Virus record (IMG/VR): IMGVR_UViG_3300027861_000245
Span: 1 to 20,331 of that record
Direction: 5' to 3' (one strand)
Source of the DNA: a virus
Length of the DNA stretch: 20,331 nt
Made by a program: the position numbers and the translations under genes. Under the pieces are notes generated by a model that was given only the letters and a program-made list of their open reading frames with translations, did no database searches and had not been told where the DNA came from. Positions 7,320 to 13,639 of the stretch are shown here, one piece after another; position 1 is the stretch's first letter; each line of letters starts with the position of its first letter.

Positions 7320-7763
7320 TTAAGCCGCCATGTTGCCTCGTTGAATCGAGATGAACAACGAGTCTTGTGATTGCGTTTCTTTAATGATGTAACGCATTTG
7401 AATGGTGAATTCGTGTTCCTCTGCTGAGATCAACACGTCGATTAAAGAGATGCGAGTTTCCCATCTCTCAATTGCCTTGATAACAACCCGCTTTGCAATG
7501 GACTTCAAGAGCGCGTCATTAGGTTCAAAGACCAACTTGTTCAAAGCACTACCGAACTCTGGGAGCATTACGCGCTCGCCTGGGTGGGTAGTTAGGATTG
7601 ATAGGATTGATCCGTAAATGACTTCTTTGGTGTAGACAACTTCCCACGGGCCACCTTGCTTATCACGCAAAGGCAATGCGAGTCCTCTATACCTTGCCCC
7701 GAACCTCGGGTTTGCATTTGTCGATGTTGGATCAGTTGTAATGTTGTTAATGACTAAGCCCAT
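7320..7763 (-). CDS. Baseplate wedge protein, gp25-like (GPW/gp25 family)
   Basis: A 147-residue protein, the usual size for T4 gp25 / P2 gpW homologues. Residues 61-82 (PGERVMLPEFGSALNKLVFEPN) and 101-105 (WETRI) match the two conserved blocks of the family, the second being the W-E-x-R-I motif at the core of the wedge interaction with sheath and gp6/gpJ. The ATG at 7763 overlaps TAA at 7763-7765 in the TAATG arrangement common in this module. That TAA belongs to the frame of the PAAR gene read through its internal TGA. In contractile systems gp25 seeds sheath assembly at the baseplate. Confidence 0.92.
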   Translation of the reverse strand: MGLVINNITTDPTSTNANPRFGARYRGLALPLRDKQGGPWEVVYTKEVIYGSILSILTTHPGERVMLPEFGSALNKLVFEPNDALLKSIAKRVVIKAIERWETRISLIDVLISAEEHEFTIQMRYIIKETQSQDSLFISIQRGNMAA

Positions 7764-7810
7764 TAGTTTACATTTACGTCAGACGAACCGCCTGTACAGG
7801 AGTGAGTAAT
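7763..7810 (-). other. In-frame C-terminal extension of the PAAR gene beyond TGA
   Basis: Directly after the TGA at 7811-7813, the same frame continues for 15 sense codons (ITHSCTGGSSDVNVN) and stops at TAA, whose last base is the A of the gp25-like ATG. The extension contains His84, Cys86 and a final SSDVNVN strand like the SSNVF strand earlier in the protein, as expected for the missing end of a PAAR fold. The junction has the same TAATG form as at 5300, 8053, 10609, 11118 and 18033. Without read-through, this 47-base gap would be the only notable non-coding gap in the baseplate cluster. Confidence 0.6.
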
Positions 7811-8053
7811 TCAAGTGTCGGCGTTACCGCTGTAATTCACTGCAATGCCTTCAGCAAAAACATTTGAGCTTCCGTTAGCCGTCTTCAAGTTTGGAGAACA
7901 GTGAGGATTACCGCCTGTGCAGGAGTCATCCGATGTTCTACTAGACCCATCAACAGAAAGTAAACTTCCGTTGCAGAACACAGTTGACTGAAGAACTGAA
8001 TTAAGCACTCCGTTATCTGTGTTCAAGTCTCCGTCTCTGTGTGCTGCACCCAT
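7811..8053 (-). CDS. PAAR-domain spike tip protein (interrupted by in-frame TGA)
   Basis: An 80-residue frame starting at ATG 8053, overlapping the spike gene's TAA as TAATG. The pattern AAHRDGDLNTDNG, STVFCNGSLLSVDGS, NPHCSP and NGSSNVFAEG is that of phage PAAR proteins, which cap the gp5/gpV spike as a sharp cone and bind a metal through His and Cys. The frame ends at GNADT-TGA. In PAAR relatives as I remember them, a Cys commonly follows this Gly-Asp-x-x-Ser/Thr segment, so TGA stands where TGT or TGC would be expected. With the 15 following codons the product would be 96 residues, a normal PAAR length. It may be read through, recoded, recently mutated or mis-sequenced; the truncated form would lack its last strands and probable metal ligands. 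Confidence 0.82.
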   Translation of the reverse strand: MGAAHRDGDLNTDNGVLNSVLQSTVFCNGSLLSVDGSSRTSDDSCTGGNPHCSPNLKTANGSSNVFAEGIAVNYSGNADT

Positions 8054-8943
8054 TAGTTCAAGTTGATGTTGGTTCCAGTAATGTTGACATCGCCTGATGC
8101 CGTTAAGTCCAAGTCACCTGTGCTACTGAGTAGGATCTTGCCGCTCTCAGTCATCTTCAGTGTGTGACCGCCGTTTGTTGAAAGTTCTACGATGTCAGTA
8201 GAGCTGTTCATTGACAGTTGGTGTCCATCGTCTGTGTTGATTTCAATCTTTGGAGTCTCATCATCAAGCCAAATCTCTTGACCACCTTTAGTGGTAATCA
8301 CGATTGACTCCTTACCGCTAATGTCTGACATCAAAATGTTATGACCCAACGGAGTCTGCATTTCAAGTCTTCGAGTAGCTGCTTTGTCATCAAAACTAAT
8401 GATGTGACCACCCGCAGTTTCTAGCGTGACGTGTTGACTATCTCCACCGGAGTTATCATCGAAGATGATTTTATGCCCTCCAGGAGTTCTAATAGCCGAG
8501 ACCTTCCGAGCTTCAGCAGTTGCCCCGTCAATGTTCGATCCGGGGTAGACGTTACCCGCGTGTCGGCTTTGCCCTGTTGTGTCTGCTGCTCGCTGCCCTA
8601 CTTCAGTGATCGTATCGTCCTTACCCCAAACAGTTCCCATCCAGAACGGATGATGCGGATCACCCTGCATGTACATCACCGCAACTTGCGAACCTACCGG
8701 GGGAACTCTGTAGTCCCCGTGGTCAGTACCACCACCGCCTAGTGAAATGAAGTGCGCCCAAGGTAATGCCGAAGTTGGGATCTTAGATTTATCCGTGTTG
8801 ACGGCTGACACTCGAACCTTTACACGCCCAAGAATCTTTGGATCATCAGTGTCTTCGATTAAGCCGATATAAACACCGTAGTATCTATCTCTCAATCGTT
8901 GACGGTCTTGATTGCCAGCTTGGTTTAAGCCTGGATCAGTCAT
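8053..8943 (-). CDS. Baseplate spike protein (gp5/gpV/VgrG-like, no lysozyme domain)
   Basis: A 296-residue protein starting at ATG 8943 with CGGAG seven bases upstream. Residues of about 20-110 form the OB-fold: YYGVYIGLIEDTDDPKILGRVKVRV, then DHGDYRVPPVGSQVAVMYMQGD and PFWMGTVWG, the classic pattern of gp5/gpV N-terminal domains. Residues 155-296 are a beta-helix made of turns with a recurring (G/L/D)GH or GGQ motif at 155, 178, 199, 220, 239 and 258, spaced 23 to 19 residues, ending in GDLDLTASGDVNITG. As a trimer it should form the membrane-piercing needle, held by the hub protein upstream and capped by the PAAR protein downstream. There is no T4-type lysozyme domain between the OB-fold and the helix. 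Confidence 0.93.
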   Translation of the reverse strand: MTDPGLNQAGNQDRQRLRDRYYGVYIGLIEDTDDPKILGRVKVRVSAVNTDKSKIPTSALPWAHFISLGGGGTDHGDYRVPPVGSQVAVMYMQGDPHHPFWMGTVWGKDDTITEVGQRAADTTGQSRHAGNVYPGSNIDGATAEARKVSAIRTPGGHKIIFDDNSGGDSQHVTLETAGGHIISFDDKAATRRLEMQTPLGHNILMSDISGKESIVITTKGGQEIWLDDETPKIEINTDDGHQLSMNSSTDIVELSTNGGHTLKMTESGKILLSSTGDLDLTASGDVNITGTNINLN

Positions 8944-13453: not shown

Positions 13454-13639
13454 CTAAGATTTACCTCTACTAGCTTTATCAATGGCTTCTTTCTTCTCAC
13501 GCAAGACTTTATTGAGCAAACTAATTGTCTGCACACGTTCCACTCTTGCCATGCCTTCCACACAACTCCAAGTTATGCCTTTGGAGTGGTATGCTATGTA
13601 GAACTGCTGCTCAAGCAGATCCTTGTACGTCCCGGTCAC
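13454..13639 (-). CDS. Second frame of tail assembly chaperone (downstream partner of gp26-like protein)
   Basis: A short frame in +1 relative to the gp26-like gene, ending two bases before the tape measure. The body TYKDLLEQQFYIAYHSKGITWSCVEGMA followed by a charged helix (NKVLREKKEAIDKA) looks like the small domain that follows gp26-like proteins in T4-related and other myoviruses. The frame is open from a TAA just upstream of 13672, giving three possibilities: TTG at 13672 (72 residues, weak signal), GTG at 13639 (61 residues, with GGAGG four bases upstream, my choice for an independent start), or no start of its own and entry by +1 frameshift from the overlapping gene at CCC-C (13652-13649), which would give a fused product of about 316 residues. 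Confidence 0.7.
   Translation of the reverse strand: MTGTYKDLLEQQFYIAYHSKGITWSCVEGMARVERVQTISLLNKVLREKKEAIDKASRGKS

What the first reader, a model, noticed from the sequence alone, without database searches (positions are those of the whole stretch)
7763..7813. In-frame TGA in the PAAR spike-tip gene followed by a plausible missing C-terminus
After GNADT-TGA the same frame gives ITHSCTGGSSDVNVN and a TAA that overlaps the gp25-like ATG as TAATG, the junction type of this module. The extension brings His, Cys and a final strand like the SSNVF strand earlier in the protein. TGA lies where PAAR relatives, as I recall them, often carry Cys. Cys-to-TGA with conserved downstream sequence is the pattern expected for read-through, selenocysteine or a very recent mutation. 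No clear SECIS stem is seen; only a short palindrome, CCTGTACAGG, lies 11 bases after TGA.
Basis: partly seen in the sequence, partly recalled or inferred. Interest (0 to 1): 0.75.

Follow-up and report, generated by a model that had tools for sequence, protein, structure and literature searches.

The report
Phage spike-tip gene with premature stop
The gene for the sharp metal-binding tip of an uncultured phage's tail needle carries a stop codon where almost every relative has a zinc-binding cysteine; the sequence behind the stop still encodes the missing end of the protein, but the evidence fits a recent local mutation (or an uncorrected sequence error) better than selenocysteine or another programmed read-through.

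Summary
The 80-aa minus-strand ORF (8053..7811) is a PAAR spike-tip gene. Behind its TGA the same frame encodes the missing C-terminal strand and ends in TAATG on the gp25 start. In 136 related phage PAARs the aligned residue is Cys in 132, and all but one (a partial hit) keep 13-22 residues after it. The read-through chain models as a complete PAAR cone (pLDDT 91, Z about 14 to T4 gp5.4 and T6SS PAARs); the truncated one scores lower. The Cys corresponds to a zinc ligand of known PAARs. It is not, however, a simple Cys/TGA pair. Relatives have Cys-x-His; here the stop-to-His interval is one codon longer, seen in none of 136. The TGA also lies in an 8-nt copy of sequence 26 nt upstream, next to a second intragenic repeat. 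No other TGA-PAAR turned up in 2.9 million viral contigs, against at least 117 Cys versions found with a comparable pattern. A hairpin meets the published bSECIS consensus, but so do 34% of all TGAs in the window. TGA ends other genes here, and no tRNA lies in the window. Most likely a recent insertion-type lesion, or a contig error. Low-level UGA read-through is possible; selenocysteine is unlikely.

The parts
7811..8053 (-). PAAR spike-tip gene up to the in-frame TGA (80 aa)
   Evidence: PHROG 281 PAAR, E 2e-4; profile of relatives hits PhiKZ gp163.1, T4 gp5.4 and T6SS PAARs
7811..7813 (-). in-frame TGA, aligned with the Cys that 132 of 136 relatives have
7766..7810 (-). 15 codons behind the TGA (ITHSCTGGSSDVNVN), homologous to the C-terminal strand of the family; one codon longer between stop and His than in any relative
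   Evidence: completes the fold in the model
7763..7765 (-). TAA, probable ancestral stop, overlapping the gp25 ATG as TAATG
   Evidence: same junction type as the upstream gene/PAAR junction at 8053 (21-nt similarity)
7320..7763 (-). gp25-like baseplate wedge gene; no Shine-Dalgarno-like match before its ATG, so probably translated by coupling from the end of the PAAR frame
   Evidence: Pfam GPW_gp25 E 8e-17; duplex energy -0.4 kcal/mol
8053..8943 (-). gpV/gp5-like spike gene (Phage_base_V OB domain), the expected partner of PAAR, directly upstream
   Evidence: Pfam E 1.6e-17
7806..7813 (-). 8-nt copy TGAATTAC containing the stop
   Evidence: P about 0.015 in 1000 Markov sequences
7832..7839 (-). 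second copy of TGAATTAC, 26 nt upstream in the gene, in another reading phase (G TGA ATT AC read as GTG AAT TAC)
7787..7803 (-). 17-nt intragenic repeat ACTCCTGYACAGGCGGT, C-terminal copy
   Evidence: 0 of 300 simulated sequences, and longest in other window tiles 14
7910..7926 (-). 17-nt intragenic repeat, copy in the mid-gene loop, where it replaces the family's His42 region by a longer loop with Cys45
7777..7798 (-). hairpin downstream of the TGA that meets the loose bSECIS rule but is not above background

Best explanation
This is an ordinary PAAR spike-tip gene of an uncultured contractile-tailed phage whose reading frame was very recently interrupted. A small local rearrangement, probably a 3-nt templated insertion at the Cys81 codon by slippage or template switching against the copy 26 nt upstream, made a TGA and lengthened the Cys-to-His interval by one codon without shifting the frame. 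Translation then normally stops at residue 80. The zinc ligand and the last beta strand that closes the cone on the N-terminal strand are lost, and the coupled gp25 start loses its terminating ribosome 45 nt away. The lesion is either a real allele that is tolerated, rare or doomed in the phage population, or an error of this single contig; without reads the two cannot be told apart. Shown: homology and intactness of the downstream codons, uniqueness of the stop and of the extra codon, and the repeats. Inferred: the mutational route, the recency and the functional loss.
For: 132 of 136 relatives have Cys at the site and all but one, a partial hit, keep 13-22 residues behind it. The extension is as conserved as the rest, so the stop is young or not always obeyed. 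The stop-to-His interval is one codon longer than in all 136 relatives, which a plain Cys/Sec or Cys/TGA swap does not explain. The TGA lies inside an 8-nt copy of nearby sequence (P about 0.015), next to a 17-nt intragenic repeat (0 of 300). 13 genome hits of the TGA pattern are all chance. TGA is an ordinary stop elsewhere in the window (genes ending at 13611 and 17077). The truncated chain models worse, mainly at the N-terminal strands that the missing strand pairs with (pLDDT 84.6 against 91.2). Ala at the corresponding Cys74 of EAEC PAAR loses zinc and T6SS function (PMC10715212).
Against: Every other gene in the window is intact. gp25, probably essential, has no visible ribosome-binding site and seems to rely on ribosomes reaching 7763. 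A polar nonsense allele should therefore be costly, which favours an error or some read-through over a fixed mutation. The 8-nt repeat is only mildly improbable.
Confidence: 0.68

Rival explanations
1. Contig error: the TGA and the extra codon are not in the phage DNA. (Counted inside the best explanation as one of its two branches; listed apart because reads would decide it.)
For: Single record with no read data; the stop and the extra codon are unique among 137 sequences; the sequence behind it is intact and the gp25 coupling seems to need it.
Against: All other frames of the window are clean. A frame-preserving 3-nt excess made of a nearby 8-nt copy is not a typical short-read error.
Confidence: 0.22
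2. Low-level UGA read-through (near-cognate tRNA, probably Trp) makes a few full-length PAARs next to many truncated ones. One PAAR caps each virion, so a few percent would do, as with the UGA read-through that makes the minor A1 virion protein of phage Qbeta (from general knowledge).
For: The extension is as conserved as the rest; the full-length chain folds as a complete PAAR; the required stoichiometry is low; the TGA is followed by A, not a strong terminating context (general knowledge).
Against: No relative does it. Trp at a zinc-ligand Cys would remove the ligand, and the extra codon changes the geometry. No recoding element was found.
Confidence: 0.12
3. Selenocysteine: the TGA encodes Sec as a zinc ligand at the spike tip, decoded by host SelB and tRNA-Sec through the downstream hairpin.
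For: TGA aligned with a functionally important Cys, conserved flanks, and a hairpin with a G-starting loop about 22 nt behind the TGA and MFE about -8 kcal/mol, which satisfies the published bSECIS rule (PMC13188914).
Against: 34% of all TGAs in the window satisfy the same rule and the fold is no better than shuffles (z about 0). No second Sec-containing PAAR in viral contigs or species genomes. The Cys-x-His spacing is broken. Bacterial selenoproteins are mostly redox enzymes, whereas this Cys is a structural zinc ligand. No Rfam match or tRNA in the window. The selenoproteome papers read do not mention phage.
Confidence: 0.04
4. TGA is reassigned (Trp, Cys or Gly) in this phage or its host.
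For: In-frame TGA in a conserved gene.
Against: Only one in-frame TGA in about 20 genes, against 99 TGG codons in them; TGA ends other genes, one of them overlapping the next start.
Confidence: 0.02

Closest known systems
Phage PAAR spike-tip proteins (T4 gp5.4, PDB 4ku0/5iv5; PhiKZ gp163.1, PDB 6p1z)
   Same: Gene order spike-PAAR-gp25, fold (Z 14.4 and 13.5 over 85-89 residues of the read-through model), sequence profile (E 7e-6 and 8e-13)
   Different: Reading frame stopped by TGA at the Cys of the CxH motif; one extra codon; longer mid loop with SCTGG repeat and Cys45
T6SS PAAR proteins (E. coli c1882, V. cholerae VCA0105, EAEC PAAR)
   Same: Fold (4jiw Z 14.7, 4jiv Z 14.1); zinc site of His and Cys, with the C-terminal Cys needed for function in EAEC (PMC10715212)
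   Different: Phage structural gene, truncated before that Cys
Bacterial selenoproteins found as Cys/TGA pairs (bSECISearch, deep-Sep)
   Same: TGA opposite a conserved Cys with homologous flanks and a bSECIS-like hairpin
   Different: Spacing broken by an extra codon, no second TGA homologue, hairpin at background level, not a redox protein

Membership tests
PAAR spike-tip protein | PAAR sequence family | tested here: met
   PHROG 281 PAAR E 4e-5 for the read-through chain; profile hits solved PAARs at E 1e-12 to 1e-5. The window protein alone is below the Pfam PAAR cut-off; a close relative scores 24 bits against a cut-off of 27
PAAR spike-tip protein | conical beta fold capping a gp5/VgrG spike | tested here: met
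   AlphaFold2 pLDDT 91.2, pTM 0.82 for the read-through chain; Foldseek and VIA matches to 4jiw, 4ku0, 4jiv, 6p1z; spike gene directly upstream
PAAR spike-tip protein | C-terminal Cys zinc ligand and last strand in the translated product | tested here: not met
   TGA stands at the Cys; met only if the stop is read through
Selenoprotein | TGA aligned with Cys of homologues in an otherwise ungapped, conserved context | tested here: not met
   aligned with Cys, but one extra codon before the His in 0 of 136 relatives
Selenoprotein | bSECIS element behind the UGA | tested here: inconclusive
   consensus met, but also by 34% of all TGAs in the window; shuffles z about 0
Selenoprotein | more than one TGA-containing homologue | tested here: not met
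   0 hits in viral contigs, only chance hits in genome contigs; the pattern has limited recall, about half of known relatives
Selenoprotein | Sec machinery (selA, selB, selC, selD) in phage or host | not testable with these tools
   no tRNA in the window; the host is unknown and the record is a 20-kb fragment

The most novel reading that the evidence does not exclude
A phage selenoprotein or programmed UGA read-through at the zinc-ligand Cys of the needle tip, giving two forms of PAAR from one gene (truncated and full-length).
Probability: 0.1. Interest if true: 0.8.

Novelty: new member of a known kind. Interest (0 to 1): 0.28.

Why it matters
If the stop were translated it would be an unusual case of recoding in a phage tail protein and, as Sec, a selenium ligand at a zinc-closed membrane-piercing tip. 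As it stands it is mainly a well-documented case of how a Cys/TGA pair with conserved downstream sequence and a consensus-satisfying bSECIS can arise from an ordinary local lesion. It shows that residue spacing and background SECIS rates should be checked before calling viral selenoproteins.

Tried and rejected
Close relatives of the same phage: none found. The best PAAR relatives share 50-59% identity and the best gp25 47%; the spike protein gave no relative in the pattern scan; DNA search of the phage collection gave none; an exact degenerate pattern of the site gave none. So synonymous/nonsynonymous tests behind the stop were not possible. Pattern search with the window's own longer spacing plus TGA gave two contigs, L273 and L274, which are not PAAR. 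Rfam gave nothing. Terminator and promoter scans near the site were at background. Alternative code was rejected on stop usage. SECIS by minimum free energy was rejected on background. Literature on phage selenoproteins: no paper found with the terms used. The host could not be inferred; sheath relatives are as diverse as Listeria, Bacillus, Thermus and cyanobacterial phages at 38% identity or less.

Full report
What is there. The window is a 20.3-kb IMG/VR fragment with a minus-strand tail module of a contractile phage: sheath, tube, tape measure, LysM-like and spike genes, PAAR, gp25, baseplate J ('LysM-like' is an inference from order and weak PHROG hits). The PAAR ORF runs 8053..7811 and ends in TGA; the frame continues 15 codons to TAA (7765..7763), which overlaps the gp25 ATG as TAATG. 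The spike/PAAR and PAAR/gp25 junctions resemble each other over 21 nt, so 7763 looks like the natural end of the gene.

It is a PAAR gene. PHROG 281 (PAAR) matches both the truncated and the read-through chain. A profile of 46 window-like sequences matches PhiKZ gp163.1, T4 gp5.4 and T6SS PAARs. The read-through chain, folded with its relatives, gives pLDDT 91.2 and pTM 0.82 and superposes end to end (residues 2-96) on 4jiw, 4ku0, 4jiv and 6p1z with Z 13.5-14.7. The truncated chain gives 84.6 and 0.71, with the loss mostly in the N-terminal strands that the missing strand covers.

The residue at the stop. I collected 136 distinct related PAARs from IMG/VR. The aligned residue is Cys in 132, followed by x-His in 129; all but one, a partial hit, keep 13-22 residues behind it. 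In EAEC PAAR zinc is bound by H14, C41, H46 and C74, and the C74A protein loses zinc and does not complement (PMC10715212). By position (inference) Cys74 corresponds to the stop here, Cys41 and His46 to Cys45 and His51. The codons behind the stop are about as similar to relatives (0.48) as the rest (0.51), inside the spread of the family. So the stop is recent, or is not always obeyed, or is not in the phage at all.

Why not a clean Cys/TGA pair. Every Cys-x-His relative has exactly one residue between Cys and His; the window has two codons between the TGA and the His, an excess of one codon found in none of 136. The TGA and the next codons (TGAATTAC, 7813..7806) are an exact copy of 8 nt located 26 nt upstream in the gene (7839..7832). 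A repeat at least this long over the stop appears in 1.5% of simulated sequences. Directly behind it, 17 nt are repeated with one mismatch in the mid-gene loop (0 of 300 simulations; longest in other window tiles 14). The gene thus shows two signs of local copying, and a templated 3-nt insertion at the Cys codon explains the stop and the extra codon together. This route is an inference.

Selenocysteine and read-through. A TGA version of the motif has no hit in 2.9 million viral contigs. 13 hits in 84,980 species genomes are out-of-frame chance matches. The pattern covers about half of the known relatives, so rare cases could be missed. TGA is a normal stop for at least two other genes, and no other gene has an internal TGA. 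Low-level near-cognate read-through remains possible: one PAAR per virion is enough, and gp25 has no visible ribosome-binding site and seems to need ribosomes reaching the TAATG. That last point also argues for a contig error.

Verdict. The favoured reading is a recent, unique, insertion-type interruption of an ordinary gene (about 0.68 together with the contig-error branch, which I put at about 0.22). Read-through is about 0.12, selenocysteine about 0.04. Reads at the site or a second record of the same phage would settle it.

Noticed in passing
window 7787-7803 and 7910-7926 (minus strand): 17-nt intragenic direct repeat encoding SCTGG twice in the PAAR gene; the mid-gene copy lies in a loop longer than in relatives and coincides with loss of the nearly invariant His42, with a Cys at 45.
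   Followed up: partly
window 7759-7779 and 8049-8069: The spike/PAAR and PAAR/gp25 junctions share a 21-nt pattern (76% identical): both genes end in N-x-N-x-N-stop with TAATGGG into the next gene.
   Followed up: no
window 7763, 8053, 18033, 18497: Several genes whose starts overlap or abut the previous stop have no Shine-Dalgarno-like match, suggesting translation by coupling.
   Followed up: partly
L009 (IMGVR_UViG_3300017605_001304): Closest gp25 relative (47%) with a PAAR of the same order, whose CxH motif is C-F-D; its TGA stop overlaps the gp25 start as an ordinary terminator.
   Followed up: no
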